Positions 16,426 through 58,268 of a stretch of 64,000 nt of DNA are shown here, in pieces (positions within the stretch are counted from its first letter, which is position 1; each line of letters begins with the position of its first letter). The translations under genes were made by a program, and so were the position numbers. The DNA is from Hemileia vastatrix (taxonomy: Eukaryota > Basidiomycota > Pucciniomycetes > Pucciniales > Zaghouaniaceae): contig JASXTE010000007.1 in NCBI GenBank assembly GCA_030280995.1, positions 6,263,501-6,327,500 of the forward strand. Direction: 5' to 3'. Below the pieces are notes generated by a model that was not told where the DNA came from, made no database searches, and saw only the letters and a program-made list of their open reading frames with translations.

Positions 16426-16434
16426 AAAAAAATG

Positions 16435-34069: not shown

Positions 34070-34074
34070 AGTAT

Positions 34075-35392: not shown

Positions 35393-35401
35393 AAAAAAAT
35401 G

Positions 35402-36900: not shown

Positions 36901-37035
36901 AGAATGTTTACCATATGAATCCAGAATTAATTTTCAAATTTCCTCTTCCATATCAACAATGTATATACCCTATATATGTACTGTATCATCTTCAGGTACA
37001 TACGCTGGATTTGATAAATCATTTGGAAGAGGTAA

Positions 37036-38530
37036 TCAGGACAACATATCAACATTTGAATGAACATTTCCAGCCCTATGAATAATAGTCATTCTACCTC
37101 TGTATTCTTGAACTGCTAGTTGCCATCTAAAAATATGTCTATTTGGTGTTTTCAAGTTTAAAATTGATTTCACAGAATTGAGATCAGTAACTAATTCAAA
37201 CTTTTGATCATCTAAATAATATTGAAGCTTTTCTAAAGCCCATACAACTGCTAAGCACTCTAATTGAGTGGCACCATATTTCAATTCACTTTTTCTTAAC
37301 ATTCTTGAAATATAACAAGTTACTACTTCTGAAAATTTTTCATTAATAATTTGTTTTTGACAAAGAGCAGCTCCAAGTCCAATAAAACTTGCATCTGTAT
37401 AAAGAAAAAAAGGCTTATTGAAATCTGGAAGGGCAAGGATTGGAGCTGACATTAAACATCTTTTTAATGTATCAAAAGCTCTTTGACTGTCCTCATTCCA
37501 TATATAAGCCAAATCTTTTCTTGTTAGTTTGGTAAGTGGTAAGGCTATGACTTGATAATTTTTTATGTATTTTCTATAGTAGCCACACATTCCCAAAAAA
37601 CTCTGTTTTTTTTACAGATGTTGGTGCTGACACATTTTGGATAGCAGCAACTTTTCCTTGGTTTACAGAGATCTACAAGCCAGACACAACAAGACCCAGG
37701 ACTTTTAAGGATTGAAACCAAAATTTACACTTTTTTAAGGATAAAGTCATGTTAATTTCATCCATTTTCTAGAAGACTTTATTCAAGTGTTGTAAATGTT
37801 AATCAAAAGTTTTATAAAAAACTATGATGTTATCAATATAAACCATTAACCAACCTTAAATTATTTCCAGATGAAATGTGTTACCCATCACTTTTTGGAA
37901 TACTGAAGGGGCATTTTTAGGGCCAAAAGGCCTCCTAAGATATTTGTAAATTCCCATATGGGTTTAAATTAGCAAATTATTTTGGGAAGACTGTTAAACA
38001 GGTATTTGATGATAACCTTTATTACAATCCAGACAGCTTATGAATTTAGCACCTTGTGAGGTAGCATTTATAGAGCTAAATCTGGGTAATGGGTAAATAT
38101 CATCCAAAGTATAAGTATTAAATGCTCTATAATCTTCACAAAGTCTAGCTTTATCTTTTTCATAAGAGATTAAAACTGGAGAGATGACACAATATTTTGG
38201 TGTAACATCTACTTTTTCAATAATATACATACTAAATAAAGTTGAGATATTATCTTCTATATCTTTTCTCTTTGTGGGAGAAGCAGGGTAAGGTTTTTTC
38301 TTTAGGCTAGGAGGTATTTCATTCAAATTTCAGGATAAAGAAATTTTCATTTCATTTTTAACCAAGCCTAACACATGGGAACAATGAGAAAAAGACATTG
38401 GGAAAGATGTAATTAAGGCTACTATTGAATCTTTTTGGTCATCAGTTAATTGATCACCAAATGAAGCTGTTTCAATTTCAGACAATAATACATTCATTTC
38501 CTCTGTTTTTCTACCTTTAAATTGGATCAA
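37036..38530 (-). pseudogene. Reverse transcriptase and RNase H remnant (element D)
   Basis: RT entry IPPSLKKKPYPASPTKRKDI is at about 38255-38320, and GAKFISCLDCNKGYHQIPV at about 37994-38050. The catalytic box reads YIDN instead of YIDD (37829-37840), a GAT to AAC change that would abolish polymerisation on its own. RNase H (37036-37596) is well preserved: LYTDASFIGLGAALCQKQ, KYGATQLECLAVVWALEK and LVTDLNSVKSIL supply the acidic residues. A frame change lies between 37600 and 37990. Confidence 0.87.
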
Positions 38531-38769
38531 AGAATGACAAGATTTTAGTAATGGTTAAGAATGCTTTTTAGAAGAAGAAATTTTAAATTTTCCTTTCCCA
38601 TTCATTCCCAAAGTAAAAAAATTGCTTGCAGGATCCAATATAATGAAAAAATGGTTAAAATATCATTTTCAATGATAAACCAATTGCTTAAATTGTCATT
38701 TTTCATCACAACAAATTCAAAAATAGCTCTGACAAAACCACCATTATATTTAAAGAATACAGTGGTTTT

Positions 38770-39081
38770 TTATTTTCCAATGGAACATAAAACAGAACCA
38801 TAACCTTTCCATTTTTCAGATGTTATAGGTAATAATTTGCATTGATAATCCTTATCTACAGAAGCAAGTGCTTTTTCAGACACTACAATTCCTCCAGCAC
38901 CACAGTCAAGAATAATCTCAACATTTTTACCATTAATGATAACTGGTGCTCTCAAAGGTGATATTAAAATGGAACTGTCAGTAATATCTTTAATTACTTC
39001 AGCATTTTCTACAGAAGATAAGTCAATATCACAATTATCAGACCAATTATCTAAATATTGGATATCCTTTTCTGAAACCAA
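38770..39081 (-). pseudogene. Retropepsin-like protease (element D)
   Basis: Minus strand, with the same entry as in C (SSVENAEVIKDITDSSILIS). The catalytic motif reads ILDCGAGGIVVSE, with Cys replacing the Ser/Thr of the D-S/T-G triad. It ends at a stop after CSIGK, before the flap and C-terminal blocks. Both points argue against activity. Confidence 0.82.
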
Positions 39082-40302
39082 AACTTCCTGATAAGACTCA
39101 TGGACATAAGAGATATTACTATTACAGTCACTGGAGGAATCATCAAGATAAGCTTGAGTATTTTCAGATTACTCATTTTGTTTAACAAGATGAATTTCCT
39201 TGTCACAAATATGTCCTTTTTTCCATGTTTTTTACATTTAAAACAAGTATTAGTTGCATATTTCTTTGGAGCAACTGGGGCATATGGTCTACCAGTTTCT
39301 TATGGAAGTTTTGTGGAAGGATTTTGTTGGTCATGATAAGATTTAACAGGATAATTCCTTGGTTCATATCTATGATTTAGTAGGACTACATTACAGATAT
39401 TAATAAAGAAAGAATTTTCTCTCACATGCTCAGTCCTTGCTACAATCACATCTCTCAGAGAATTTTATCTCTCCAAATATCATAATCCATTTTAGGAACC
39501 ATGTCTCTAACAATTTTTGTAATTTTCATAAGGAAAACTATAGGTTTTTCAGGAGAGGAGGACACTTATTTAGAATTCTCATATAATCTCTGCTGGGAAA
39601 GCCTGATTTTCGAACCACCAAATTAATTTCCAATCAATTTTTTCCACTCTTTCCAAGTATAATGTTGGTTGTCCAGTAAGACAAATTCATACCACATTAA
39701 AGTAACATTGGAAAATAAAGAAATTAATTTAGAGACAGATTCTTCATCTGGAAATTTATAAGAGTTTTTCAGCTTATCAATTCTATGAACAAAGTGTTGC
39801 CAGTCAGATGAAGAGTCACCATCAAAAGTGGGATATTGATCCAGTTTGGGCCAATTTTTCTGGCTACTGGGATGGTCCATCTTTTGGTTTGAATTATTTA
39901 AAATTAATAATTCTTGAAGTTTAGCCAAGTGTTCAGAAATTTCATTATTTACAGAAACAGCTGGTTCATGACCATTAAAAGATTTTTAGCTAGTAGCAAA
40001 AAATTTTACAGACTAATTGTCAGTTTGTTTAATGGCTGAAATATGGGGAAGAAAAGAGCTTCTCTGTTCAGGTTCCTTTCCTTTATTCTTATGCAGCTTA
40101 TGGGAAGCACTTTCATTTACATCATAATGATTGATGGTTAAGGCTGAAATTTTTCCTGCAGGTCAGACACATAGTTTCTTATCCTTGGAATTTCAGACAT
40201 CTGGTCATTAATTTTTTCAAGGGATAAAACATTTCTGTCCTCAAAAACTGTGTGTTTGGTACTTAGTGCATGGAAATCATTTTTTAGCTTTTTCAACTCA
40301 TT
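39082..40302 (-). pseudogene. Gag, C-terminal part (element D)
   Basis: Minus strand. The capsid domain begins QKNWPKLDQYPTFDGDSSSD near 39800-39860 and continues with SLFSNVTLMWYEFVLLDNQH. A knuckle region near 39210-39270 is damaged by stops and shifts. The piece begins abruptly at 40302 inside the helical N-terminal region (ELKKLKNDFHALSTKHTVF in element C terms), because the 16-kb element interrupts it here. The N-terminal half continues at 56356. Confidence 0.83.
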
Positions 40303-40335
40303 CACCACGGGAAATCTGGGGGTGAACTGCTAGCA
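40303..40335 (+). repeat. Left terminal inverted repeat of the 16-kb element
   Basis: It starts CACCACGGGAAATCTGGGGG and continues TGAACTGCTAGCA. About 29 of 33 positions match the reverse complement of the right end. Behind it CAGTTTCC and GGAAACTG recur several times (40335-40400), forming short inverted motifs of the kind often found under transposon ends. Confidence 0.88.
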
Positions 40336-40579
40336 GTTTCCTCTATTTTAAACTATCAGGAATTTGTCAGGAAACTGTTGGGAAACCATCCTGAAACTGT
40401 CAGAAATATGTTTTTAAATCTGATGAAAAAACATTGAAAAAATAAACTGTCACAGATTGAATCCAGAACAATCCCTCCTTGAGCAGAGCATAGGAACCAC
40501 ATTGAACATCAGTTAATCTCAGGTTTGGCAAAAGGTTGAACAACATCACTTAGCATACCTTAATATTCAAATACTAAAC

Positions 40580-40940
40580 TTGAATATATGTTGCGTGTAT
40601 GATATAGATGCATATGCATTTGAATTTGCATGGTGGATACTTATTGCATGTTAAAAATTGATGTGAAATGCCTATCTAAAGTGTATGCATAATGACTATG
40701 AAGAATAAATATGCATAAAAAATATGCATATTGAATATGCATTAAAAATATGCATATTGAATATGCAAAAAAAAGGTGCATATATGTATATGAATAAAAT
40801 ATATTAATTTGCATACAAATCAGTATAATGAATATGCATATGCATATTCATATCCATAAATATGCATAATGATTGAAAAATGCAAAAAAATGATGCTTAA
40901 AAAGTATATTTTATGCATAAATAGAAATATGCAATATGAA
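40580..40940. repeat. Cluster of TATGCAT / ATGCATAT motifs
   Basis: More than a dozen copies of the self-complementary ATATGCATAT or parts of it (for example AAATATGCATATTGAATATG) sit in about 350 bp of the left arm of the 16-kb element. The right arm has only a single TATATGCATAAG near 56098. No coding sequence is present. Confidence 0.75.
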
Positions 40941-41358
40941 TTCATATTGCATACAGATAACACTGGCAAACCAACTTGACCAAAACTCATACTAAATTTT
41001 CATTCTGGACTAAAGGTGTGAGGGAAGGAAGAAAAACAGTCCAATGTTAGAAAAATGCTACATGCACTCATTTTGTAGCAGAGCAAATGAGAAATGCTGA
41101 ATTATGGTTGGTGCCCATAATTTAGTATGATATCATAATTTTATTTAATTGTTTTCAATATTGAAAAGACTTTAGGTTGGTTGGTATGGATCTAGCTGTG
41201 CCAGGGTCTAATCTAATTATTTTAACAATTTCTTAATAATTAATGGGTTTTAATACAAAAACAGGTTGTATTTTTTGTGGGATATTGGATATGATAAGGT
41301 CTTTTGTAAAAAAAAACTTATATTGTTAAAAAATACTCCTGAATCAGATGTGGGATAA

Positions 41359-42538
41359 TGTCAGCCTAAATATCCTTAGGACTGAGTATTTCTTATGCTT
41401 AAAATAAGATAACCTTAACTAGATTAAGCTTATATCTTAAAAATAAGGTTAAAATAATAATATATATTATTTTACTATATATATATATATAATTATTATT
41501 CTATTATATAATTTATAATAGTTTAAATAGCTTATCCATGGCCTAATAATACTTATTAAGGTGTTAATGGAGTCATAATATACTTATCTTAAGTGATATG
41601 AAGTAATTATTGACATACATAAGCTTATATGTATACATAAATCTCATATTCAGTGAAATATGCAGTATATTATGTATATTTAGGTATATAAGTGGGTTTT
41701 AGCCCCTTAATAGCCTATAACCTTTGTTTTTCTGCTTATTTTAGGTCATATGGACAAAATCAGTGGACTCACAACGCCTACAGAAGCATAGACACCTATA
41801 TCAGGCGCATACACCCAGTTTGGACAACTAAAATTACTTCCTTGGATGGTTATTCACGGATTTATGGGTTGGAAAGATGTTTTTGGGTTGATGTGGATGC
41901 TTGGGGATGTTATTGGGGGCTTGGAAATTTTATTTGTTTCCTTTATATGCTTTTAGTTTCATTAAATCTCTTTTTGATCATTTATTTTACCTGTTTCTTT
42001 ATGGTATCCGCTTTTATCTGGGTTTTCTATTTATGGTATGACTCTGTGTTATTATTAATAGTGATGGAGGGTCCTTACTGGAGGTCTGGGTGTTGAAACT
42101 GCTTGAAGTGGAAGCCATGGGGAGGTGATGGGCCCTCACAGTGCTGTAATTGCCGGGGATAGCAGTGACATCATCTGGATTGAAGGTCTGTGCACTCCAG
42201 TGGATTTGGGTGTAAGTAAGGAGGGATTTTGACGGTTTATTATCATCATTCAATTACTACACTTCAAACAAACACTATAATAGAATTATTAGCAATCAGA
42301 AATATATTATAAAGCCCTTATAAATTGATATTATCTTTATAATAAGCTATAACTATATTTTATTCTTCTATTTTCCACCACTAGCACGCATTTAAATCCA
42401 AGTATTGTGAGTTTTATTTGAGTATAACTATTCTATTAGTCTTCCCCTGAGGTTTAATCACTAAATCATTTATAAATAAGTAGTAGGACCATAAAATAAC
42501 ACTATTATATCATACTTACATACTAGACTATACTGACA
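41359..42538 (+). repeat. 5' LTR of element E
   Basis: It starts TGTCAGCCTAAATATCCTTA and ends ACTATACTGACA. A TATA box (TATATAAG, 41685-41692) is a plausible promoter, followed by a GC-richer transcribed part. A TA-repeat microsatellite lies at 41477-41491. Open frames inside it, such as 41692-42096, also occur in the other LTR copy but look like chance frames. Confidence 0.93.
41685..41692 (+). promoter_or_regulatory. TATA box in the 5' LTR of element E
   Basis: TATATAAG is preceded by AT-rich sequence and followed about 30-40 bases later by pyrimidine/purine transitions typical of start sites. The same sequence is kept in the 3' LTR (46540-46547). No start site can be mapped from sequence alone. 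Confidence 0.5.
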
Positions 42539-42553
42539 ATTGGGGGTCTTTCC
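42539..42553 (+). promoter_or_regulatory. Primer-binding site of element E
   Basis: ATTGGGGGTCTTTCC follows the LTR directly. TGG is the complement of a tRNA CCA end. Elements C and D have close variants at the same place, which supports a conserved tRNA primer. Confidence 0.72.
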
Positions 42554-43049
42554 TTATATTTTACTTATTATTTAGTATAAGCCTTGGGACGTGATTTTTA
42601 CCTTAGTAAAACTCAAAATTAACCAAATATTTGGGTCTGCTGCATATTAGTGGGTCATAATAACTCATTGATTGCGGAAAAGAACCCTTATAATAATTGT
42701 ACTAATTTTTTACCATAAAAATTAGATATTTGCAGTAGTAACTGTACCCAATATAAACCCAATTTCACTTGGTATTTGGACACCAATATAACACCCAATT
42801 AAATTGGTATTTGGCTAAAGCTTGGTAAGCTAATTATTCACCCTTATAGAGGTCTAGTTAAACTTATTATTATATTTTTAACAGATTTTTTCGAATTTTT
42901 CTTATATTTTATTTAAATAAATAAAGATATAAATTCAGGGTAAGCTCCATTGCTTTTTTATTAGTAATATAATTGCTAATATTATTTGTCTACTAATTAC
43001 ACAGAGTTTTTTCCTTTTGTAGACGTAAAATATTGTTATTCTGAACAAT

Positions 43050-45347
43050 ATGAGTGCTCCCCAGGATAGTGTAAGTGAACAGCCTGCTTATAATACCAGG
43101 TCTAAAGCTAACAAAAACTTTCCAGGACATCACCATGGAGGGACAACAGTACCCCCAGCCAGAAAGCATGAGTATAGAGGAAAAGGACGCCCTCTTAAAA
43201 AAGATAACTATAAAAAAGACGTCTCCTCCTCTTCAGGATCAACTGTCCCACCTGGCCAAACAGGTTCTGAAGTTGGAGGAATCAAAATCTCTCATGTTCA
43301 AAGAAGTAGAGCAGTTGCAAAACAATTGCAAGGTAGGATTTCAGCAGATGAATCAGGCAATGGCAGAATTAAAGGGAGGCCAGCCCAGTCAATCAAATCA
43401 GCAACCCCCTACCCAAGGAGGGTCCACTCACTCCCAGGAGAAAATCCTGGTAGACAAATGGAAATGGGACTGGTTTCACCAACAGTGGACAAGCCACAGT
43501 TGCAACAGGGATCCGCCCCCTCATCTGACTTCCTCAGCTCACCCTTACAAGGGAAAAAAGCGCCAAAAATCAGGACTGGCAACCATCCCTTGGTAAGTAA
43601 CTTACCCTCTCAGATTAGACATAATACTGATAATTACAATATAGGTAATTCTATTGATGTTAAATCTGTACAAAAAATAGAGGAGGATTTAAGAAATTTA
43701 GGTTTTAGAGTAGATACACCTGACTTGTCTTTTGTCCATAATAACAGTACTATATACAATGATAATACAGTTAATCTTCAGTTGCAACCACCTACTAGTG
43801 AGATGAGAAGTTCACAGGAGAGTGAGAGAATTGAAAAGGAGGACATGGAATATTTTAACAATAATCCAACTGTCCATAGAATTGTTTCAGCATTGTGGAA
43901 TAGAATGACTGATTGTGAGGAACAGACAGTTAAACTCACTAGTGATACAATTTCATCCTTAACATTGAACATTTCTCAATTAGCAACACGTAATAAAGAA
44001 TTAGAGAAAGAACATTTGTCTCTAACTCTTAAATATGATTCATTGAGTATTAAATATAATGACCTTTCAAACAAATTTTGTGAGTTAGAAAAATTATATG
44101 AAACACACTTATTAAAGACTGAATCAAGAACAAAGTTATCTTTTGCACAGACAAATCAAAGTGTCTCTGAGCTGCTACAAAGATTAACTAAAGTTGAGAT
44201 TGAAACTGCCAATCTACTGATGAACCAGGATAATCATAAGTATAATCAATATAATAATAATCCTTTCATTGGAAAAAGTGAATCTCATTCCTTCCCTGTA
44301 CCACCACAATTAAAACCATCTGGTGGTAGTGTCAAATCTGAAAATGTAAGTCACAAATCCGTGCAGGAAGAAATACTAGACCATTTATCAACAGTGAATG
44401 AGTTGTTGAATTTACCTAAGATTAGTGAGATAAAATCCAATCAGAAGAACTGGCCTAAAATAGATCAGTACCCAACTTATGATGGGGAAGCCAGCTCTGA
44501 TTGGCAACATTTTATTCAAAGAATTGACAACTTGAAATTCTCATATAAGTTACCAGATGAAGAGATAACATCAAAATTAATTTCTTTATTTAAGGATGTT
44601 GCTTTATTATGGTTTGAAGCTGTCTTAAGTGAGGGTAGAGACTACTCTTGCGCTGAATGGAAACAACTTATTGAAAAACAATTTGGAGGTTCTAAATTCA
44701 GGCTTACTCAGCAGAGAATGTATGAGAAGACTAGGTATAATCCGTTGAATGGTGACAAACCTATGGTATTTTTAATGAATTTAAACAAAATATTAAAAGC
44801 CATTGAGCCTCATATGGATTTTAACTTATGGAAAGATAAGATAATATACAAATTACCTATATCTGTCAGAGACATTGTTGTAGCTAGAACATTAAATGTT
44901 ACTGAATATTCTGACTTTATTAATATTTGCAATGAAATATTATTAAACCATAAGTATGAATCAAGGTATTCCACTTATAAACAAAATTTTGAACCTGTAA
45001 AAACTCAGAATTCAAAAACACTTCAGGAGAAGCAGAAAAAACCTACTGCACCTGTAGTACCTAAAAAGTATGAAACAAATACTTGTTATAAGTGTAACAA
45101 ACCTTGGGTAAAAGGTCACAAATGTGAGGAAAACATAAATATTGCTGAAAATCAACATGAATCTGAAAATGAAGTAGAAAAGAGTAATGATTCAAGTGAT
45201 TATGACAGTAATATCTCATATAGTGATGAAAATGAAGTCTGTATGTTGGAAGATGATTTGTCCATCTTTTACAATCCAATATTAAATATAGACTCAAATG
45301 AATCTTTAATGAATTTTGAGGATGTTAAGATCATTAAGGATATATAA
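43050..45347 (+). CDS. Gag polyprotein of element E, intact, 765 aa
   Basis: It forms the particle that packages element RNA. The ATG at 43050 is the first after the LTR and primer-binding site that opens a long frame. Residues 1-190 are basic and low in complexity (RKHEYRGKGRPLKKDNYKKD). Residues about 270-400 are charged and helix-prone, probably coiled coil. The retrotransposon capsid domain spans about 463-636 (NQKNWPKIDQYPTYDGEASS to NEILLNHKYESR). A zinc knuckle CYKCNKPWVKGHKC is at 679-692, and the tail is acidic. It has no internal stop or frameshift, unlike every other copy here. The TAA at 45345-45347 is created by the deletion joint. The first 180 residues overlap a second frame (43135-43596). 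Confidence 0.92.
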   Translation: MSAPQDSVSEQPAYNTRSKANKNFPGHHHGGTTVPPARKHEYRGKGRPLKKDNYKKDVSSSSGSTVPPGQTGSEVGGIKISHVQRSRAVAKQLQGRISADESGNGRIKGRPAQSIKSATPYPRRVHSLPGENPGRQMEMGLVSPTVDKPQLQQGSAPSSDFLSSPLQGKKAPKIRTGNHPLVSNLPSQIRHNTDNYNIGNSIDVKSVQKIEEDLRNLGFRVDTPDLSFVHNNSTIYNDNTVNLQLQPPTSEMRSSQESERIEKEDMEYFNNNPTVHRIVSALWNRMTDCEEQTVKLTSDTISSLTLNISQLATRNKELEKEHLSLTLKYDSLSIKYNDLSNKFCELEKLYETHLLKTESRTKLSFAQTNQSVSELLQRLTKVEIETANLLMNQDNHKYNQYNNNPFIGKSESHSFPVPPQLKPSGGSVKSENVSHKSVQEEILDHLSTVNELLNLPKISEIKSNQKNWPKIDQYPTYDGEASSDWQHFIQRIDNLKFSYKLPDEEITSKLISLFKDVALLWFEAVLSEGRDYSCAEWKQLIEKQFGGSKFRLTQQRMYEKTRYNPLNGDKPMVFLMNLNKILKAIEPHMDFNLWKDKIIYKLPISVRDIVVARTLNVTEYSDFINICNEILLNHKYESRYSTYKQNFEPVKTQNSKTLQEKQKKPTAPVVPKKYETNTCYKCNKPWVKGHKCEENINIAENQHESENEVEKSNDSSDYDSNISYSDENEVCMLEDDLSIFYNPILNIDSNESLMNFEDVKIIKDI
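43135..43596 (+). CDS. Overlapping ORF1 of element E, 153 aa, in another frame than Gag
   Basis: The ATG at 43135 has strong context (CACCATGG). The product begins MEGQQYPQPESMSIEEKDAL, has a heptad-like helical stretch (LSHLAKQVLKLEESKSLMFK and on to residue 90), then a Gln/Pro/Ser-rich region and a WKWDWFHQQW motif near residue 113. ORF1 of element D (57047-57580) has the same architecture and a WKWDYLMNHY motif. In both copies Gag lies in the -1 frame relative to ORF1, and the same nucleotides encode WKWD in one frame and MEMGL in the other. Leaky scanning from the Gag ATG or a frameshift could produce it. The function is unknown. Confidence 0.62.
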   Translation: MEGQQYPQPESMSIEEKDALLKKITIKKTSPPLQDQLSHLAKQVLKLEESKSLMFKEVEQLQNNCKVGFQQMNQAMAELKGGQPSQSNQQPPTQGGSTHSQEKILVDKWKWDWFHQQWTSHSCNRDPPPHLTSSAHPYKGKKRQKSGLATIPW

Positions 45348-46099
45348 GAAGATATTGTGCTTTTGGTCTTAATTTTAAAGACAATGACAAATTCATGCAT
45401 GATTGGGTAACCCTTATCCCAGGTTTAGAATTTGCATATAATAGTACAGTACATTCTGTCACTGGCAAAAAGCCATTTGAGTTATGGCTGGGTTATGTAC
45501 CTAATACCCCTGCTAAAACTCTTAATAAGTTACCTAGATTGGATATTCATCCAGGTACTAAATCTTTTCTTCAGATGCAGGAATTATGCAGAAAACATGC
45601 TCAAGAATGTATAAATAAGGCTTTTGAGTATGAAAAGAAAAGATGGGATAAAGCCCATAAAGAACAAATGTTCAAAGAGGGTGATGAAGTCCTTATTTCA
45701 ACGCTACATTTCAATTTAAATGGTAATGTTAAATTGAAGGATCCATTCATTGGACCATTTGTAGTTAAAAAGATGGTTGGTAATAATGCTGTTGAGGTTA
45801 TTCTATATGCACCTTATGATAGAAAACATCCAGTATTTCCTATTTCTCTTATAAAACCATACCATTCTAATGATACTGCTCTCTTTCCAAGAAGATCAGG
45901 AAGGCATAAACAGCAACCTGAAGAAATAGTGGAAAAAGCAGAAATTGAAAAGATACTTAAAAAGAGACACCTTACAAAAGAAAAGGGAGTTGAGTATCTA
46001 TTAAGATTTAAAAATAAATCAAGTGAATATGACCAGTGGATTCCAGAAAATGAAATCTCTGATCTTAAAAATCTCTTGAAAAAATTTAAATCTAAATAA
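45344..46099 (+). pseudogene. Integrase C-terminus with chromodomain-like tail (element E), orphaned by deletion
   Basis: The frame opens at the deletion joint (RRYCAFGLNFKDNDKFMHDW) and is uninterrupted for 251 codons. The last part of the catalytic core (GLEFAYNSTVHSVTGKKPFE), the barrel (FKEGDEVLISTLHFNLNGN) and a chromodomain-like tail (EIEKILKKR, GVEYLLRFKNKSSEYDQWIP) are intact. It has no start codon before Met at 45395 and sits in a different frame from Gag, so expression is doubtful. The tail, with EYLLRF and W-IP at the right spacing, is the clearest evidence that this lineage is chromodomain-bearing. Confidence 0.85.
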
Positions 46100-46185
46100 T
46101 ACTGTTCATTCAGTATATGTATTATAAAAATTATTTTTTATTTTATTATTTCATTCCTTAAGATTAATTAAAATGTCTTAACATT

Positions 46186-46215
46186 TTTTTTATTGTTTTT
46201 TTTGGGGTAAGGGAG
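46186..46215 (+). promoter_or_regulatory. Polypurine tract of element E
   Basis: TTGTTTTTTTTGGGGTAAGG, then GAG, lies directly before the LTR start TGTCAGCC. The T-run plus purine tract is the same arrangement as in B, C and D. It is probably functional, given the youth of this copy. Confidence 0.72.
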
Positions 46216-47393
46216 TGTCAGCCTAAATATCCTTAGGACTGAGTATTTCTTATGCTTAAAATAAGATAACCTTAACTAGATTAAGCTTATATCTTAAAAA
46301 TAAGGTTAAAATAATAATATATATTATTTTATTATATATATATATAATTATTATTCTATTATATAATTTATAATAGTTTAAATAGCTTATCCATTGCCTA
46401 ATAATACTTATTAAGGTGTTAATGGAGTCATAATATACTTATCTTAAGTGATATGAAGTAATTATTGACATACATAAGCTTATATGTATACATAAATCTC
46501 ATATTCAGTGAAATATGCAGTATATTATGTATATTTAGGTATATAAGTGGGCTTTAGCCCCTTAATAGCCTATAACCTTTGTTTTTCTGCTTATTTTAGG
46601 TCATATGGACGAAATCAGTGGACTCACAACGCCTAAAGAAGCATGGACACCTATATCAGGCGCATACACCCAGTTTGGACAACTAAAATTACTTCCTTGG
46701 ATGGTTATTAATGGATTTATGGGTTGGAAAGATGTTTTTGGGTTAATGTGGATGCTTGGGGATGTTATTGGGGGCTTGGAAATTTTATTTGCTTCCTTTA
46801 TATGCTTTTAGTTTCATTAAATCTCTTTTTGATCATTTATTTTACCTGTTTCTTTATGGTATCCGCTTTTATCTGGGTTTTCTATTTATGGTATGACTCT
46901 GTTTTATTATTAATAGTGATGGAGGGTCCTTACTGGAGGTCTGGGTGTTTAAAATTCTTGAAGTGGACGCCATGGGGAGGTGATGGGCCCTCACAGTGCT
47001 GTAATTGCCGGGGATAGCAGTGACATCATCTGGATTGAAGGTCTGTGCACTCCAGTGGATTTGGGTATAAGTAAGGAGGGATTTTGACGGTTTATTATCA
47101 TCATTCAATTACTACACTTCAAACAAACACTATAATAGAATTATTAGCAATCAGAAATATATTATAAAGCCCTTATAAATTGATATTATCTTTATAATAA
47201 GCTATAACTATATTTTATTCTTCTATTTTCCACCACTAGCACGCATTTAAATCCAAGTATTGTGAGTTTTATTTGAGTATAACTATTCTATTAGTCTTCC
47301 CCTGAGGTTTAATCACTAAATCATTTATAAATAAGTAGTGTGACCATAAAATAACACTATTATATCATACTTACATACTAGACTATACTGACA
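46216..47393 (+). repeat. 3' LTR of element E
   Basis: Collinear with the 5' LTR. By eye, differences are scattered single substitutions, a small group near 46949-46970, and a 2-bp shorter TA run near 46335. It is followed directly by the GATAA duplication. Confidence 0.93.
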
Positions 47394-48241
47394 GATAATC
47401 ACTACAAAAAATTGTAGTACTGTGGGCAATAAAATATATGCACAAGCAGTAAAGAAAGGACTGAGTGAACCCTTTTTGTGCAGTGGGAATCATTATAGTG
47501 GAATTGTGGATGAAAAATATAATTCATTATTACCATTTTATTTAATCAAAAAATTTATAATATTAAAAAGAACTATTGATTAATTGGTATTTGACCTTTG
47601 TGCCTCACTCATATTTATCATTTGATTGATTTTTTGTCACCATTATGTTATAAATATTATAAGTATAGCAAAAACTCGTGTGCCCAACGCATACCGGGTG
47701 ATGTTACACCTTTTATAATATTATTAAATAAAGGTAAAAAAAGATGAAAATGATTTGTTTTACAAAAAAATAAATTGATATCCAAAAGCAATATGAGGGA
47801 TAAAAAGGTAAAATTAAAGGGATCAAATATGAAATAAAAAATTAAAATAAAATTACTGCCATCAAGAGCAAGTAGACATGTTGGGGTGAACGCTCACCAG
47901 TGGCACTAAACTTGGACTATAATTGCTTTTTCTAAAAACAAAAAAGTGCCAATCTGAGGCTTAACAAAACTTCAGCAGAACTATTTAGCCATATCAAACA
48001 ACTTCTAGTGCAATGATTGAGAGAGAATCAATCACACCAGACTGCATGTGACCAAAAGTGTCCAGCACAAGTTCGGCCAAACTTGTGCTGGACACATTTA
48101 TGGCGGAGAGTAGCTAGGGTAGAATTTTTCTACAGTTAATCTGGTATTTCTTATAAACATGTCCATTGGTACTTAATCTTTGTGCCTCACTCATATATAT
48201 CATTTGATTAATTTATTGTCACCATTATCTTATTAATATTA

Positions 48242-48439
48242 GGGGGTATCAAAGTTAGAAATTTGTAATTATTTAAAAGGCATTTCACAACACAAAAAGA
48301 AAGCCACAAACGTGACATTGACTCTCAATAAAAAGGTGTTTTGGGGGCACAATATGTCATATTTTAAAAAATAGTCATGTTTAATTTGGTGGAAAAAAGA
48401 AGTATTTTGAAAGGGAAGATTTCTAACTTTGATACCCCC
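48242..48439. mobile_element. MITE, copy 3, inside the ~605-bp array
   Basis: It starts GGGGGTATCAAAGTTAGAAA and ends TTTCTAACTTTGATACCCCC, flanked by TA (possibly TATTA). Neighbouring array units read AATATTATAAGTATAG across the empty site, confirming the insertion. It lies in opposite orientation to copies 1 and 2. Confidence 0.9.
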
Positions 48440-51400
48440 TATTATAAGTATAGAAAAAACTCATGTGCCAAATGCATACCAGGTGATGTTACACCTTTTA
48501 TAATATTATGAAATAAAAGTAAAAAAATATGGAAATGATTAGCTTTACAATAATTTAAATAGATATTAAAAAAAAAGAGAAATAGAAAAAGTGAAATTAA
48601 TCTCAAAGAGATCAATTATGAAAAACAAAATACTAGTAAAATTCATGCTCTCAAGAGCCAGTAGAAGTGTTGAAACAAATGGGAGCCATCAGGGCTAAAT
48701 TTTAATAAGTGACCTTTTTTTATAAAGATAAAAAATTATACACCTGAGGTTGGGAAGAACAACAGGTGGATTATTCAGCTAAACAAAATTATTTGTAGTG
48801 AATTTTAATAAAAAATGTTTTTTTGTTGCCATAGAGAGAATAGATCCCATCTGACTGCACTTGACCAAAAGTGTCCAGCACAAGTTTGGGCAAAATTGTG
48901 CTGGACACTTTTATGATGGAGAGTAGCTTGGGTGGAAATTTTCATCAGTTCCTTCATCTTGTATTTCTTATAAACATGTCTACTGGTATTTGATAAGTCT
49001 GTATCTTTCATATTTATCATCCGATTAATATTTTATCAACATTATATTATTAATGTTATTAGTATAGCAAAAACTTGTGTGCCAAATGCATACCATGTGA
49101 AGTTATACCTTCAATAATTTTTTAAAATAGACTTAAATAAATATGGAAAGGATTAGTTTTACAAAAATTAAATAGAAATTTAAAAGTAAAAATAGGAATA
49201 AAAGAGTAAAATAAAAGTCAAAGAGTTCAAATACAAAAAAAATACTAGTAAAATTCCTGCTATCAAGAGCCAGTAGAGGTGTTAAAGCAAATGGGAGCCA
49301 TCAGGGCTTAATTGTAATAAGTGACCTTTTCTTTAAAGATAAAAAATTATGCACATGATATTGGGCAGAACAGCAGGTGGATGATTCAGCTAAACCAAAC
49401 TACTTCTAGTGAAATTTGATAAAAAAATTTTTTTGTTGCCATACAGAGAATTGATCCCATCTGACTGCACATGACCAAAGGTGTCCAGCACAAGTTTGGC
49501 TGAACTTGTGCTGGACACTTCTATGATGGAGATTGGCTGGGTTAGAATTTTTCTTCAGTTCATCTGGTATTTCTTACAAACATGTCTACTGGTATTTTAT
49601 CTTTGTGCCTCACTCATACATATTGTTTGATTAATTTTTTGTCTTAATTACATTATTAATTATATAAGTATAGCAAAAAATTGTGTGCCAAATGCATACT
49701 GAGTGATGTTACACCTTCTATAATATTATTAAATAAATATATAAAGATATTAAAATAATTTACTTTCAAAATTATTAATTGATATCCAAAAGCAATATGA
49801 GGAATAAAAAATAAAGTTAAAGGGATCAAATATGAAAAAAGAAATCCAAGTATTATTCCTAATATCAAAGGCCAGTAGAGATGTTGAAGCAAATGAGAGC
49901 CATCAGGGATAAATTGTACTAAATTGACTGTTTTTTAAAGATAAAAAATTGTGTACCTGTGGTTTGGATGAACTATAGGTGGATAATTCAGATATATCAA
50001 ACTACATCTAGTGAATTTTCTTATCAAATTATTTTTTTTTGCCATAGATAGAATTGATCCCATCTGACTGCACCTGACCAAAAGTGTCCAGCACAAGTTC
50101 AGCCAAACTTATGCTGGACACTTTTATGATGGAGAGTAGCTAGGGTGCAGGTCTTCTTCAGTGCAACTGTTATTTTTTTAAAACATGTCAACTGGTATAT
50201 GATCTTTCTGTGTTATTCATATTTTATTATCTGATTAATTTTTTGTCATTAGAATATTATTAATTTTATTAGTATAGAAAAAACTTGTGCGCCAAATGCA
50301 TGCCATGTTATATTACACCTTTTATAATATTATTAAAAAATGTTAAAAAAATATGAAAATGATTTTTTTCCCAAAATTATAAATTAATATCCAAATGTAA
50401 CATAAGTGATAAAAAATTAAAGTATAAGAGATCAAATATGAAAAAGAAAAATTCAAGGAAAATTCCTGCCTTCAAGAGCCAGTAGAGGTGTTGAAACAAA
50501 TGGGTGCCATCAGGGCTAAATTTGATAAAATTTAATTTTTTTTATAGATAAAAATTTTTTCACCTGAGGTTTGGAAAAACTCAAGGTGGATAATTCAGCC
50601 ATAACAAATTGCTTCTAATGTAATTATTTAGCATTTTTTTAAATTTAATTTCCACAGAGAGAATTGATCCCATCTCACTGCACCTGAACAAAAGTGTCCA
50701 GCACAAGTTCGGCCAAACTTGTGCTGGACACTTTTATGATGGAGAGTAGCTAGGGTGGAAGTGTTTCTCAGTACATCAGTTTTTTGTTTTTCACATTTCT
50801 ATTGGTTTTTTAACTTTTTTTTATCATTCATATTTATCTTATAATTAATTTTTTGTCACCATATATATTATTAATGTTTCTAGTATAGCAAAAACCTGCA
50901 TTCCAAATGCAAAATTGGTGATGTTACACCTTTAATAATATTATTATATAAAGTTAAAAAAATATGAATATATTTAGTTTTTAAAAAAATAAATTGATAT
51001 TTAAAATTAAAAAGAGTAATAGAAAAGTAAAATGAAAATAAATGGGATCAAATACAAAATAAAAAATACAAGCAAAATTTTACTATCAAGAGCCAGAAGT
51101 GGTGTTGGGAAAGTTGGGGACCCCTAGGTCAAGACTTGGTCTAAACTTAATTTTATGTATAGCTAACAAATTTTGAGCTGAGGTTTGGACAGACTTCCAG
51201 GGGACAATTTTACAATATTAAACATTCTATACTTCAATAATTGAGTAAAATATCATTTTCATTGCCATAGAGAGAATTTATCTCATATGACTTCATGCAA
51301 CCAAAAGTGTCCAGCACAAGTTTGGCCGAACTTGTGCTGGACACTTTTATAATTGAGAGTAGGCATACAGCAAATATTCTTAAACTCAAAAGGGATTTCT

Positions 51401-53714
51401 TATAAACATTTCCACTGGTATTTGATGTTTCTGTGTCATTTTAATTTACCATTTGATTAATTTTTTTTCATCATTATATTATTAACGTTATTACTATAGT
51501 AATAACTTGTGTGAAAAATGCATACCAGGTGGTGTTCCACCTTTAATCATATATTATTAAATAAAGGTATAAGAGCATGACAATTATTTATTTTAAAAAT
51601 AAAAATTGATATCCAAAGCAATATGAGCAATAAAAAAGTAAAATAAAAGGGATAAAATAAGAAAAAAAATCTAAGGAAAATTCCCACTATCAATAACAAG
51701 TAGAGATGTTAGATCAAATGTGCACCACCAGGGCTTAACTTGGACTATATTTTCTTTTTTGTTAAACCAAAGAAAGTGTCCTGATGAGCTTTGAAAAATC
51801 ATCAGGAGGACTTTTTGGAAATATCAAACTACTTATTGTGCAATGATTGAGAAAAATGTCATTTTCATTTCCATAGAGTAAATTTATCCCATCTGACAGC
51901 ATGCAACCAAGAGTGTCCAGCACAAGTTCGGCCGAACTTATGCTGGACACTTTTATGATGGTGAGTATCTAGGGTTCAGGTATTCCTTATAAACAAATCC
52001 ACTTGTATATGATCTTTCTGTGTCATTAATATTTATCATTTTATTCATTTTTTTCACCATTATACTATTAATGTTATTAGTACTGAAAAAAATTATAAGC
52101 CAAATGCATACTGGGAGATGCTACGTCTTTAATAATCTTATTAAATAAAAGTAAAAAAATATGAAAAGTATTAGTTTTACAATAAATAAATTGATATTTG
52201 AAAGCAAAAAGAGGAATAAAAAAGTAAAATAAAAGTGATTAAATATGAAATTAAACATTCAAATAAAATTTCTGACATCAAATATAATTTAAGTTTTTAG
52301 ACCAAAATTGCACCACCAGTTCTAGATTTGGAATATATTTTCACTTTTTTAAATTAATAAAAGTGTCCACCTGTGGTTTTAAAAAAAATCAGGAGGATAG
52401 TATAGCAGTATAAAACTACTTCTTGTGCAATTATTGAGAAAAAATTCATTTTAACTTCCATTGAGTAAATTTATCCCATCTCACTGCATGCAACCAAAAG
52501 TGTCCAGCAAAAGCTCAGCTGAACTTGTGCTGGACACTTTTATGATGGAGAGTAGCTAGGGTGCAAGTCTTCTTCAGTTAATCTTATATTCATTTTAAAA
52601 ATGTCTATTGGTATTTGATCTTTCTGTGTCATCCATATTTATTATTTGATTATTTTTTAGTCACCATTATAGTATTAATGTTTTTGGTATAGAAAAAACA
52701 TGTGTACTGAATGTACACTGTGTGATTTTACAACTTTAATAATATTATATAATAAATGTAAAAAAATGTGAAAGTTATTGGTTTTACCAAAATAAAATTG
52801 ATATTTAAAAGCTAAAGGATAAATAAAAGGGTAAAATTAAAATTAAAGAGATCAAACATGAAATAAAGATATTAAGTATAATTTCTGCTATTATGAGCCA
52901 GTAGAGGCTTCAGATAAAATGGGCACCATCATAGATTAACATGGATTAAATTTACTTTTTACCAAAGTAAAAAATTGTCTACCTTAGGTTTGGACAAACT
53001 TCCGGGGGACAATTTTTCCATATAAAACTACTTTCAGTGCAATGATGGAGTGATCATTCAGTCTCATTTCCATAAAAAGAATTGATTGCATCTGACGGCA
53101 TGCAACCAAAATTGTCCAGCACAAGTTTGGCCAAACTTGTGCTGGACACTTTTATCATGGAGAGTAACCAGGGTGAAAGTCATTTTAAATCATCTGGAAT
53201 TTCTTATAAACATGTCCACCGTTATTAAATCTTTGTGCCTGACTCATATTTATCAATGGATTAATTGTTTGTCACCATTATATTATTAATATTATCAGTA
53301 TAGCAAAGACTTGTGTGCCAAATGAATACTGGGTGATGTTAAACCTTTTATAATATCATTAAATAAAGGTAAAAAAATATGAAAATGATTTATTTTACAA
53401 AAAATAAACTTCTATCCAAAAGCAATATGAGAGGAATAAAGTAAAATAAAAGAAATGAAAGATGAAAATTAAAATCCAAGTTAAATTCCTGCCATAAACA
53501 GAAAAAAGAGATGTTGAATCAAATTAGCACAATCAAGGCTAAACTTGCACTAAATTTTCTTTTTTGTAAAAATATAAAAAAATCCACTTAAGCTTTTCCA
53601 AAACTTCAGCATGAAAATTTTTCCATATCAAACTACTTCTAGTGTAATTTTTTATTAAAAATTTATCTTCATTTCCATAGAGAGAATTGCTCCCATCTGA
53701 CTGCACTTGACCAT

Positions 53715-53756
53715 AAGTGTCCAGCACAAGTTCGGCCGAACTTGTGCTGGACACTT
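53715..53756. repeat. Perfect 42-bp palindrome of the array
   Basis: Left arm AAGTGTCCAGCACAAGTTCG, centre GC, and a right arm that is its exact reverse complement, meeting at CGGCCG with no loop. Other units keep the outer GTGTCCAGCACAAG / CTTGTGCTGGACAC arms and vary mainly in the central TTCGGCCGAA. Confidence 0.93.
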
Positions 53757-55549
53757 TTATGATGGAGAGTAGCTAAGGTAGAATTTTTCTTCAGTTCATC
53801 TAGTATTTCTTACAAACATGTCTACTGGTATTTTATCTTTGTTCCTCACTCATAAATATCATTTGATTAATTTTTGGTTGCCATTATATTATTAATTTTA
53901 TAAGTATAGAAAAAACTCATGTGCCAAATGCATACCAGGTGATGTTACGCCATTTATAATATTATTAAATAAATTTATAAAAATATGAAAATAGTTTATT
54001 TTAAAAATTATTAATTGATATCCAAAAGCAATATTAGGAATAAAAAATTAAGATAAAGGGATCAAATATGAAAAAAGAAATCCAAGTAACATTCCTACTA
54101 TCAAAGGCCAGTAGAGGTGTTGAAGCAAATGAGAGCCATCAGTGATAAATTGTACTAAATTGAATTTTTTTTAAAGATAATAAATTGTGCACCTGTGGTT
54201 TGGATGAACTCTAGGTAGAAAATTTGGCTATGTAAAACTACTTCTAGTGAAGTTTTTTATCAAATAATTTATTTCATTGCCATAGCAAAAATTGATCTCA
54301 TATGACTGCACCTGACCAAAAGTGTCCAGCACAAGTTTGGCCAAACTTGTGCTGGACACTTTTTTGATGGTGAGTATCTAGGGTGCAGTTCTTCTTCAGT
54401 GCAACTGGTATTTTTTTAAAACATATCCACTGGTAATTGATCTCTCTGTTTTATTAATATTTTATGATTTGATCAATTATTTGTCACCAGTATATTATTA
54501 ATTTTATTAGTATAGCAAAAAAACATGTGCCAAATGCTTACAGGGTGATGTTAAACCATTAATAATTTTATTAAATACAGGTAAAAAATTATGAAAATGA
54601 TTTGTTTTACATTAAATTAATTGATATCTAAAAGAAAAAAAAGGGATAAAAAGAAATAGGTTGAATAAAAGGGATTTTATATGAAATTAAAAATTCAAGC
54701 TAAATGCCTACTTTCAAGGCTCAGAAGAGGTGTTGGATAAAATGGGCATCACCAGGAATAAAATTGTACTTAATTTGGTTTTTTTAAAAACTAAATGAAG
54801 TTTTCAACTTTTTTTTTTCCAATATTTAGTTGGAAACTTTGTCTATATCAAATTACTTCTAGTACCATGATTGACCAAATTAAATCCTCATTTCCATATG
54901 CAGAATTGATCCCATATGGCTGGACCAGGCCAAAGGTGTCAACCACAAGTTTGAGAATTCTTCTGGTGGACACTTTTATGATGGACAGTAGTAGGGTGCA
55001 AGTCTTCTTTAGTTAATCTAGTATTCCTCATAAACATTTCCAACTTATTTTTGGCCAAAAATCAGGTGGAAAGTTTGTCCATATCAAACTACTTCTAATG
55101 CCATGATTGACTAAAAATTGATTCTCATTTCCATATAGAGAGTTGATCCCATATGACTGGATCTGGCAAAAGTGTCACCACAATTTTTGATAAACTTAAG
55201 TTTGAAAATTTTATGATGGAAAGTAATTGCAAGTCTTCTTCAATTCATTAAGTAATCCTCATAAAAATTTCCACCTGTATTTTGGCCAAACTTTAGGTGG
55301 ACACTTTGGCCATATTAAATTAATTCTAGTTCCATGTTGATAAAAAACTGATACTTATTGCCATATATAGATATTAAACCCATCAGACTGGGCCTTTCCA
55401 AAAGTTTCTACCTGAATTATGGCTAAACCTCAGTTGGACACTTTTATGATGCAGAGTAGCTAGGGCAAAAGTATTCTTCAGTTAATTTGGTATTCATAAG
55501 AAATTAATCCTCCTGAAGTTTAGCCTAACTTCAGGTGGACAATTTCGGA

Positions 55550-55780
55550 AAGCACCAGTTAGTCACTATCCATCAAAAAAGTTTTCACCAAAGTTTTGGC
55601 TAAACTTGTGGTGGACACCTTTGATCAGCAACAGTCAGATGAGATCAACTCTTTAGATGGAAATGAGGATGATGTTTTGGTCAATCATGGAAATAGAAGT
55701 AGTTTGATGTGGCCAAATTACCCCCCTGAAGGTCAGACAAACCTCACAAGGACACTTTTTAGCAGGGAGTAACTGAGAAA
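55550..55780 (-). repeat. Inverted unit at the right end of the array
   Basis: In reverse complement this reads GGTAATTTGGCCACATCAAA, then CTACTTCTATTTCCATGATT, GATCTCATCTGACTG and GGTGTCCACCACAAGTTTAG. This is the normal order of a unit. The flank CACTATCCATCAAAAAAG (about 55565) is the reverse of the usual post-palindrome ATGATGGAGAGTAG. Orientation therefore switches at this unit. Confidence 0.8.
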
Positions 55781-56322
55781 AATCCATTTATCAGAAGGAA
55801 AATCTTTTATTGGATAGATGCCAAGGTTTCATACTTGTGTATTATGGTCGGAATTAATTTTGAAAGTGTCTGTCCAAGCAATTTCATTGCCCATCATGAC
55901 ACATTTTGTTTTAAATGTTTCAAACTGTGTGATACAGTATTAAGGTGTCACATAGTATAATTAAGTTCTATTAAGTGCCCTCCTATGATGCCTAAATTTA
56001 TAATTTAATATCTTACATAATAATTTTTTTATATATAAATTCATCAATATTTTATTTTATTATCAAATTTAATAGAGCAAGTATCCTGAATTATTATATA
56101 TGCATAAGCTTAGGTTAGATCAATCTGTACTCAATTTGTGCTCAACAGATGACCAAAATCTAGTTCTGGAGGATCAACTTGTGCATAATTTGGAATCAAA
56201 TGATATTCTGTCTATAATCAATCTGAGAATAAATGTAAATCTAACTCTAATTTACTTATGTTTATAAAGTATTCATAAACCTGGCATAATTAAGGGACAC
56301 TATAAATTTCAAGAGAGGGGAT
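55781..56322. other. Right arm of the 16-kb element, no gene seen
   Basis: AT-rich sequence between the inverted array unit and the right terminal repeat. No open frame or clear similarity to the left arm beyond the terminal repeat was found. Confidence 0.6.
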
Positions 56323-56355
56323 TGATAGCAATTCACCCCTAGATATCCCGTGGTG
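56323..56355 (-). repeat. Right terminal inverted repeat of the 16-kb element
   Basis: Reverse complement starts CACCACGGGATATCTAGGGG and continues TGAATTGCTATCA. It pairs with the left end at 40303-40335. Directly outside it lies ATT, then the resumed Gag sequence of element D. Confidence 0.88.
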
Positions 56356-57194
56356 ATTGTGTAGAGTTTAATTTCACTTTTTAATGAATAATTTTCCTCA
56401 ATAAGGGGTTTCAATTCACTCAAGGTTTTATGCAGATGAATATTCTTATCTGAGATAGCTCTATGGTCACTCCTTATTTGTTTTTGTTGGCTAAGAACAA
56501 TATTTAAAGTTTCTTTGATTTTAAAATAAGCTGTATCTTGTACAGAAGAGCTCACTTTACAATGCAAGTGCAAATTATTCAATCTATCACTCTCATGTAT
56601 TAACACATCTCTCAAATGTTTGTCTTTCACAACATTAAAATCAAGTGTATCTTTCAATATTTCTTCAGAAATTTTCATAATTAAGGTATAGAGTTCAGGG
56701 GAAACAGAAACATTCTTAATTGCAAGAGAAGGATTAATTAAAGAAGCAGAAGTTAAATGTAAAGGTTCATCAAATCATAATTTTCTAATTACATCATTGG
56801 GGCTACTCATTAAAGGAAGTTGTCTTTTTAAGGGTTTAACTGTTCTTTCACCATGATCCACAATATTACCTGTGAAAGAATATTTGTTATTATACATTTC
56901 AACATGTTTATCAAACAAATTACTTACCATGGCAAGGGAGGAAACTTCCCCTGTGCCTTCTTTCTTCTGCCTCAATAAGGATGGGGCTGAGGAGATGAAT
57001 GGTAGTTTGGTGTCCTGGATTGGCCAGGGTGTTAAGGTGTTGGTTGCTAAAAATTCTGTTGGTAATGGTTCATCAAGTAATCCCATTTCCACTGCTCTAC
57101 CTGCAGAGTGTTTTGGTTTTGAGTGAAGGAGCTGGGTGTCTGATGGGGCTGAGGTTCAGGATGAGGCTGAGAGGCTGGGAAAGGAGGAGGTTGA
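56356..57194 (-). pseudogene. Gag, N-terminal part (element D)
   Basis: Minus strand. The frame from about 57194 reads TQLLHSKPKHS, then MEMGLLDEPLPTEFLATNTL, MVSNLFDKHVEMYNNKYSFT and the helical region to LKSEIKLYT at the insertion point. A TGA near 56775 interrupts it (RKL*FDEPL). It matches element C residue by residue over most of its length and continues, after the 16-kb insert, at 40302. It is inactive because it is split and carries a stop. Confidence 0.83.
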
Positions 57195-57580
57195 GCCTGT
57201 TTGGGATTTAATAACTCCTGCAACTGTTTCCAGAGTGTGTCTACTCTTGCCTTGTATTTCATACTTTCTGCCTTCAGTTCTTTTATGTGACTGGAAAGGT
57301 TGTTTACTTGTTGAGTCAGATTATATTTTTTATTTTTATACCCTTTAGTGGATTTTCCTGATTTATCAGAGATTTTGCTTCTTTCAGAGGTGTTTAGTGA
57401 GGGGGGTTTGCCACTTCTCCTGCCATTTCCACATCCTGAAGGTTCTTTGTCAGATAAATAATTTTTGTAAGTTAATTTAGAAGAACCTACAGATTCAGTG
57501 TCAAGATCCACTTCAATTTCATCCACATGTAAGTTATCCATGATGTTAGCCAAACTACTGGACATAAAAACTGTGAACAA
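57047..57580 (-). CDS. ORF1 of element D, about 164-177 aa, overlapping the Gag frame
   Basis: The frame opens at 57580 with a TTG; the likely start is MDNLHVDEIEVDLDTESVGS about 13 codons in. A Ser/Lys-rich region and a short helix (HIKELKAESMKYKARVDTLW) precede a Pro/Gln-rich stretch and WKWDYLMNHYQQNF at the end. The last ~100 nt overlap the Gag frame, which is -1 relative to ORF1, as in element E. Intact in a copy whose other genes are dead, it may simply have escaped mutation. The function is unknown; no family was recognised. Confidence 0.55.
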   Translation of the reverse strand: MFTVFMSSSLANIMDNLHVDEIEVDLDTESVGSSKLTYKNYLSDKEPSGCGNGRRSGKPPSLNTSERSKISDKSGKSTKGYKNKKYNLTQQVNNLSSHIKELKAESMKYKARVDTLWKQLQELLNPKQAQPPPFPASQPHPEPQPHQTPSSFTQNQNTLQVEQWKWDYLMNHYQQNF

Positions 57581-58253
57581 TGAATCAAAATGATTTTAAT
57601 GATTCAAATTTGTATTTTCAAAATAAAATATAATTAAATGCTTTTTTAACAAAAACAAAAAAAAATTAAATTTTTATTCAAAAATCAATTAATTAACAAA
57701 AAATGTAATACAAAATATATGTAATTACAATTGTTTATTAAGAAATAACAATAATTATAATGGCACAAACCAACAAAGGTTTAACAAGTCAGCCATAAAT
57801 AATTAATTCCAAAAAATATATTGGCAATATTAGGACTAAGCACTGAGTACTATTATGGTCAACCAATAAATCAAAAAATATTTAAAAAAAAGTTCATTTA
57901 TTAATTTATTAAAAATTTAATGATCTTCTAGGACTAAGAGTATTACTCTATTATGGTCAACTAGGAATAAAAAATTAATAAAAATTTGAACACTTACACT
58001 CAGTGAATCAGCAATTTAGCCACAATCACTGTTATTGAAATAAAAATTTAATAATATAAGTGAGAGGTTCAAAGGTCAACTTACTATAGTGATCAAGAAA
58101 TAACTGTAAAATTATATAATTTTTAATTAAATATAAACCTAAAAGGTCGAACCCAAGTTTGAAACACGTTCATGGCAAAAAAATTTCTTTTTGACTTGGG
58201 TGGTCTGTGCGCAATGTCGTTTGTTGCAAGGTGGCATATTGTTGTTGACATTT

Positions 58254-58268
58254 GGAAAGTCTCCCAAT
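58254..58268 (-). promoter_or_regulatory. Primer-binding site of element D
   Basis: The minus strand reads ATTGGGAGACTTTCC directly after the 5' LTR. It differs from the element E site at two bases (GGAGAC for GGGGTC). Confidence 0.68.

What the first reader, a model, noticed from the sequence alone, without database searches (positions are those of the whole stretch)
40303..56355. A 16-kb terminal-inverted-repeat element made mostly of a palindrome array
Two matching ~33-bp inverted ends (CACCACGGGAWATCTRGGGG...), an exact ATT duplication and the intact site in element C define the element. It has no visible transposase, and its main content is a ~605-bp tandem array. A mobile element that carries a satellite as cargo is unusual. 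The ends do not match a family I can name; 3-bp duplications are known for CACTA-like and some other superfamilies.
Basis: partly seen in the sequence, partly recalled or inferred. Interest (0 to 1): 0.87.

Follow-up and report, generated by a model that had tools for sequence, protein, structure and literature searches.

The report
Transposon carrying a palindromic satellite array
A non-autonomous cut-and-paste transposon, about 10 kb before a younger insertion, is made mostly of a repeated noncoding unit with a conserved 46-letter palindrome; similar satellite-carrying transposons are known from plants, so it is an unusual example of a known phenomenon.

Summary
An element at 40303-56355 has inverted ends matching at 29 of 33 bases, an ATT duplication, and a paralogous unfilled site (ACT) in a second copy of the LTR retrotransposon it sits in. 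The original element was about 10.0 kb, about 8.2 kb of it array region. Array units differ from one another (K80 minimum 0.123, median 0.32) more than the host retrotransposon's LTRs do (0.071), so the array was probably already old when the element landed: it was carried. Each of 11 aligned units has one 46-bp palindrome, the best-conserved stretch of the unit. No transposase was found in what I tested. CAC..GTG ends with 3-bp duplications match rust-fungus EnSpm families (PMC12730594); PlavakaB is close. I call it a probable non-autonomous EnSpm/Plavaka-type element. CACTA elements with satellite arrays are published for Chenopodium (PMC8978399). A second copy or an autonomous relative could not be sought: the own-genome search did not complete (13 attempts).

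The parts
40300..40302 (.). target-site duplication ATT, left copy
40303..40335 (+). left terminal inverted repeat, 33 bp
   Evidence: 29 of 33 identical to the right end
40303..41358 (+). left arm, noncoding; 11 ATGCAT motifs between 40608 and 40918, possible subterminal repeats
   Evidence: positions: 11 observed, 2000 dinucleotide shuffles of 40303-41353 mean 1.79, largest 7; longest stop-to-stop frame 68 aa in 40303-41353
41359..47393 (+). younger Ty3-type chromovirus nested in the element; LTRs 41359-42538 and 46216-47393, TSD GATAA; gag-like frame 43029-45347 (no Pfam match) and chromodomain end 45338-46099, no room for the pol part between them
47582..55042 (+). tandem array of ~605-bp units (11 palindrome-bearing units)
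48237..48444 (-). MITE-like insertion inside the array, other copies at 13750-13953 and 31671-31878
54801..55760 (.). distal part of the array region: ~231-bp modules lacking most of the 605-bp unit's spacer, the last one inverted (55565-55760)
48054..48099 (.). palindrome 1, 21/23 pairs
48867..48912 (.). palindrome 2, 21/23
49477..49522 (.). palindrome 3, 19/23
50080..50125 (.). palindrome 4, 20/23
50690..50735 (.). palindrome 5, 22/23
51303..51348 (.). palindrome 6, 22/23
51909..51954 (.). palindrome 7, 21/23
52496..52541 (.). palindrome 8, 21/23
53108..53153 (.). palindrome 9, 22/23
53713..53758 (.). palindrome 10, 22/23
54318..54363 (.). palindrome 11, 23/23, perfect
55761..56355 (+). right arm, one ATGCAT; no complete frame of its own over 92 aa (a host-element frame, 56262-56774 minus, runs into its last 94 bases)
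56323..56355 (-). right terminal inverted repeat, 33 bp
56356..56358 (.). target-site duplication ATT, right copy
34073..59536 (-). host LTR retrotransposon D, split by the element; LTRs 34073-35369 and 58267-59536, TSD AGTAT
15096..24497 (-). retrotransposon C, paralogue with the unfilled site near 21333-21336; TSD CATAT

Best explanation
It is a non-autonomous DNA transposon of the EnSpm/CACTA-Plavaka kind. The ends and the 3-bp duplication are shown. A transposase supplied in trans by another element, acting on the CACCACGGG ends, cut it out and pasted it into an older LTR retrotransposon (inferred). It carried a noncoding array with it (favoured by relative divergence, from one copy). The array probably grew from a ~231-bp module with two related palindromes, still at the right edge, into ~605-bp units by unequal exchange (inferred). 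The strong 46-bp palindrome is kept better than the rest of the unit, either because a DNA-binding protein uses it or because hairpin-prone sequence is corrected between units; this step is open. Later a chromovirus landed in the element; a MITE-like copy also sits in the array, its date unresolved.
For: TIRs, TSD and paralogous unfilled site. CAC..GTG ends with 3-bp TSDs are reported for three TET-bearing EnSpm families of Puccinia striiformis, with related EnSpm families in other rusts including Austropuccinia psidii (PMC12730594, passages). No Pfam match at E up to 1 in 6 of 6 frames of the left arm; longest stop-to-stop frame 92 aa in 47399-56355. Array older than the insertion: 55 unit pairs, K80 minimum 0.123, median 0.32; host LTRs 0.071, inner LTRs 0.0154. 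Palindrome columns 0.915 mean pairwise identity against 0.704 for the rest; best non-overlapping window 0.813. Three direct ~231-bp modules match the palindrome-bearing part of the 605-bp consensus at 75-77% over 220-259 bp, an inverted one at 76% over 196 bp.
Against: The pentamer is CACCA, not CACTA. ATGCAT motifs crowd the left arm only (11 left, 1 right), whereas CACTA subterminal repeats are expected at both ends. One copy only; no transposase with the same ends seen; right arm and array were not scanned against Pfam. The dating assumes equal rates, no LTR gene conversion, and that the retrotransposon did not itself move with the element already inside. The host organism is not identified.
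Confidence: 0.72

Rival explanations
1. A short TIR element inserted first and the satellite grew inside it in place, so the array was never carried.
For: Only one copy is known, so cargo has not been shown by a second insertion.
Against: 54 of 55 unit pairs have K80 of at least 0.21 and the closest pair 0.123, above the host LTR divergence of 0.071 that bounds the insertion's age.
Confidence: 0.12
2. It belongs to PlavakaB or another superfamily rather than EnSpm; the mechanism (trans-mobilised cut and paste) is the same, so this overlaps the best explanation and disputes only the family.
For: PlavakaB has 2- or 3-bp TSDs and 5'-CATCA..TGATG-3' ends (PMC12730594), one base from CACCA.
Against: The third base differs; the same paper found no TET-bearing Plavaka in Pucciniomycotina. 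Whether this host belongs there is not known.
Confidence: 0.25
3. Assembly artefact: 40303 and 56355 are joins.
For: The ends sit beside long repeats, which are hard to assemble.
Against: Three nested insertions with separate target duplications AGTAT, ATT and GATAA, and continuous homology to C across both edges.
Confidence: 0.02

Closest known systems
EnSpm families of rust fungi (PMC12730594; passages read)
   Same: CAC..GTG termini, 3-bp TSDs
   Different: the three families described there carry a transposase and a TET/JBP dioxygenase gene; here no such gene was found; satellite content is not mentioned in the passages I read
PlavakaB (PMC12730594; passages read)
   Same: 2- or 3-bp TSDs, CA..TG termini
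   Different: CATCA..TGATG rather than CACCA..TGGTG
Jozin CACTA-like elements of Chenopodium with captured satDNA (PMC8978399 passages; PMC7320549 abstract and outline)
   Same: CACTA-type element with an internal satellite array; one of 16,523 bp with a 5,550-bp array of 171-bp monomers near the 3' end
   Different: that element keeps a coding region; here none was found and the array fills most of the element; no palindrome is described in the passages I read
MITEs and Helitrons with internal tandem repeats (review PMC12628747, passages read)
   Same: tandem repeats inside a mobile element; palindromes said to be frequent in satellites
   Different: other superfamilies; MITE arrays much shorter (recalled)

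Membership tests
EnSpm/CACTA | 3-bp target-site duplication | tested here: met
   ATT/ATT and paralogous site ACT
EnSpm/CACTA | CAC..GTG termini (fungal EnSpm as in PMC12730594) | tested here: met
   CACCACGGG at both ends
EnSpm/CACTA | exact CACTA (or CACTG, recalled) terminal pentamer | tested here: not met
   CACCA at both ends
EnSpm/CACTA | subterminal repeats at both ends | tested here: inconclusive
   ATGCAT 11 times in the left arm, once in the right
EnSpm/CACTA | transposase with C(2)C and H(3-4)H motifs, in it or in a relative with the same ends | tested here: inconclusive
   no Pfam match in the left arm, no frame over 92 aa in 47399-56355, right arm and array not scanned; autonomous relative not sought because the genome search did not complete
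PlavakaB | CATCA..TGATG termini | tested here: not met
   CACCA..TGGTG
PlavakaB | 2- or 3-bp TSD | tested here: met
PIF/Harbinger | TWA target duplication (recalled) | tested here: not met
   ATT
Ty3 chromovirus (inner insert 41359-47393) | LTRs with 5-bp TSD and C-terminal chromodomain | tested here: met
   GATAA; PF00385 E 2.2e-08

The most novel reading that the evidence does not exclude
The palindromes are working parts of the element: repeated binding sites, for the transposase, an accessory protein or a host chromatin protein, kept by selection while the surrounding unit drifts, so that the transposon spreads a ready-made satellite with a protein-binding platform around the genome.
Probability: 0.15. 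Interest if true: 0.7.

Novelty: new variant of a known kind. Interest (0 to 1): 0.42.

Why it matters
Where new satellites come from and how they spread is an open question. This locus gives relative dates: the array units had diverged before the element landed, which favours transport over growth in place. The conserved palindrome gives a concrete site to test for protein binding or hairpin-driven exchange. It does not change what is known about CACTA elements carrying satellites; it adds a noncoding, array-dominated case, possibly in a fungus.

Tried and rejected
Rejected: that the whole 16 kb is one original element (chromovirus inside). Rejected: that inverted similarity alone proves the ends (1,116 inverted 33-mer pairs in the window pass the same cut, this one included). 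Rejected: compensatory change holding the palindromes together; of changes from the consensus 20 are on one arm only and 3 on both, of which 1 keeps pairing, so sequence rather than pairing is conserved. A second weak palindrome about 137 bp before the strong one scored 9 to 14 of 20 in the 11 units, shuffled control mean 10.5, 95th percentile 13, largest 16: visible in the consensus, not convincing unit by unit. The 'P1' column was off by one base and is replaced. Folding as single-stranded DNA: 3 of 3 palindromes tried (of 11) gave z of -7.6 to -9.5; the two transposon ends gave no significant fold (z -0.61 and -1.15).

Led nowhere: TIR and palindrome patterns in viral contigs (0 hits each) and in genome contigs, which is prokaryotic (0 hits each); plasmid tblastn of the chromovirus end (none); Rfam and tRNA scans (none). 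Paper searches for rust fungi or basidiomycetes with CACTA or TIR elements plus satellites listed nothing relevant (2 papers; 1 paper), in this library only; some searches were general, asked for Plavaka.

Host organism: the chromovirus end has its best match (76%) in a record labelled uncultured Paraburkholderia MAG, presumably contamination; among the 20 hits the only named eukaryote is Austropuccinia psidii (38% over 99% of the query, 47% over 53%). Of 47 hits to a frame of host element D only Cicer and Tarenaya are named organisms, both weak. A fungus of or near the rusts is my inference, not shown.
Full report
Check of the observation. The two ends are real. The left reads CACCACGGGAAATCTGGGGGTGAACTGCTAGCA, the right, reversed, CACCACGGGATATCTAGGGGTGAATTGCTATCA: 29 of 33 identical. 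ATT stands on both sides. A self-BLAST of the window shows retrotransposon C (15096-24497) aligning with retrotransposon D (34073-59536) up to 40300 and again from 56358, the matching points in C being 21334 and 21336. C reads CAACTC-ACT-GTGTAG there and D CAACTC-ATT-[element]-ATT-GTGTAG. So the unfilled site is a paralogue with one changed base, not an empty allele. As a caution, 1,116 pairs of 33-mers in the window, this one included and overlapping registers counted apart, share the first 10 bases in inverted orientation and reach 27 of 33 (listing cut); similarity by itself is weak here, and the case rests on position and duplication.

Nested history. The host D is an LTR retrotransposon on the minus strand; RNase H and chromodomain frames lie at 37039-37611 and 35405-36340. 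Its flanks carry AGTAT and its LTRs differ by K80 0.071. C has CATAT and LTR K80 0.089. The TIR element entered D. A chromovirus then entered the TIR element at 41359-47393, with GATAA on both sides, LTRs of about 1,180 bp at K80 0.0154, a gag-like frame of 772 aa without a Pfam match at E up to 0.001, and a chromodomain end (PF00385, E 2.2e-08); the two frames abut, so the pol part is missing. Without it and the duplicated 5 bp the element is 10,013 bp. A MITE-like copy of about 208 bp lies in the array at 48237-48444, with relatives at 13750-13953 and 31671-31878.

Anatomy. The left arm (about 1.05 kb) has 11 ATGCAT motifs; 2,000 dinucleotide shuffles averaged 1.8 and reached at most 7. The motif was picked after looking at the sequence, so this is descriptive. 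The right arm (about 0.6 kb) has one. The array spans 47582 to about 55042 in units of about 605 bp, followed to 55760 by shorter modules of about 231 bp, the last inverted. Three direct modules match positions about 311-569 of the 605-bp consensus at 75-77%, so a 605-bp unit is such a module plus about 370 bp of other sequence. I infer that the short module is ancestral.

Palindromes. A scan of the window (60 bases at either end left out) for palindromes scoring at least 14 found 11, all in the array, one per unit. The consensus is AAAAGTGTCCAGCACAAGTTyGGCCrAACTTGTGCTGGACACTTTT; the 11 copies pair at 19 to 23 of 23 positions, one perfectly. The palindrome columns have mean pairwise identity 0.915, the rest of the unit 0.704, and the best window not overlapping it 0.813; counting its own, 5 of 552 windows are at least as conserved. 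The units were aligned on their palindromes. The conserved island also takes in some 35 bp before the palindrome, so conservation does not stop at its edge. Changes are mostly on one arm (20) rather than both (3), so it is the sequence that is conserved, with no sign of compensating changes. Three of the 11 palindromes folded as single-stranded DNA gave -22.5 to -24.7 kcal/mol, far below shuffles.

Was the array carried? The element's insertion cannot be older than D's, which is dated by the LTR divergence of 0.071. The array units differ more: of 55 pairs the closest (u4, u11) is 0.123, the next 0.214, the median 0.32. Unless the array mutates faster, D's LTRs were converted, or D itself moved with the element already inside, the units had diverged before the element arrived. 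This favours cargo over growth in place, but it is an inference from one copy.

Transposase. No stop-to-stop frame exceeds 68 aa in the left arm or 92 aa in 47399-56355. The six frames of the left arm have no Pfam match at E up to 1; the right arm and the array were not scanned. Movement must have come from a transposase elsewhere (inferred).

Family. PMC12730594 (passages read) reports three TET-bearing EnSpm families of Puccinia striiformis with 5'-CAC..GTG-3' termini and 3-bp duplications and related EnSpm families in other rusts, PlavakaB with 5'-CATCA..TGATG-3' and 2 or 3 bp, and a wider CMCT clade with CA..TG termini in most cases and 2 to 5 bp. The element meets the EnSpm description, not the literal CACTA pentamer, and is one base from PlavakaB. 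I therefore say it works like a non-autonomous EnSpm/CACTA-type element and leave strict membership open.

Precedent. CACTA-like elements of Chenopodium contain captured satellite arrays, one of 5,550 bp in a 16,523-bp element (PMC8978399, passages read), and derivatives of a Jozin transposase domain are involved in making a satellite (PMC7320549, abstract and outline). A review describes tandem repeats inside MITEs and Helitrons and palindromes in satellites (PMC12628747, passages read). What I did not find in those passages is an array-dominated noncoding form with a conserved palindrome and a relative date. Searches for a fungal precedent were narrow and cover only an open-access library.

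Limits. The own-genome search did not complete in 13 attempts, so copy number, further insertions and the autonomous relative are unknown. The host is not identified: chromovirus protein matches point weakly to a fungus near the rusts, and a second search named only plants among its weak hits.

Noticed in passing
41359-47393: Young chromovirus (LTR K80 0.0154) in which a gag-like frame abuts the chromodomain end, so that protease, reverse transcriptase and RNase H are missing; probably non-autonomous itself.
   Followed up: partly
13750-13953, 31671-31878, 48237-48444: Three copies of a ~205-bp MITE-like element with inverted ends like AGGGGGTATCAAAGTTAGAAAT; A/T-only target duplication, length unresolved.
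   Followed up: partly
5653-10181: A further related retrotransposon part on the opposite strand, about 74% identical to C and D.
   Followed up: no
protein P0001: A record labelled uncultured Paraburkholderia MAG holds a chromovirus end 76% identical to the inner insert; probably eukaryotic contamination of a bacterial bin.
   Followed up: no
48054-54363: The closest pair of units is 7 apart (u4 and u11, 0.88; mean 0.773 of 4 pairs), but units 9 apart average 0.785 (2 pairs), so a higher-order repeat is only hinted at.
   Followed up: partly
60001-64000: AT skew 0.33 in 60001-62000, then GC skew -0.367 with raised GC in 62001-64000; not looked into.
   Followed up: no
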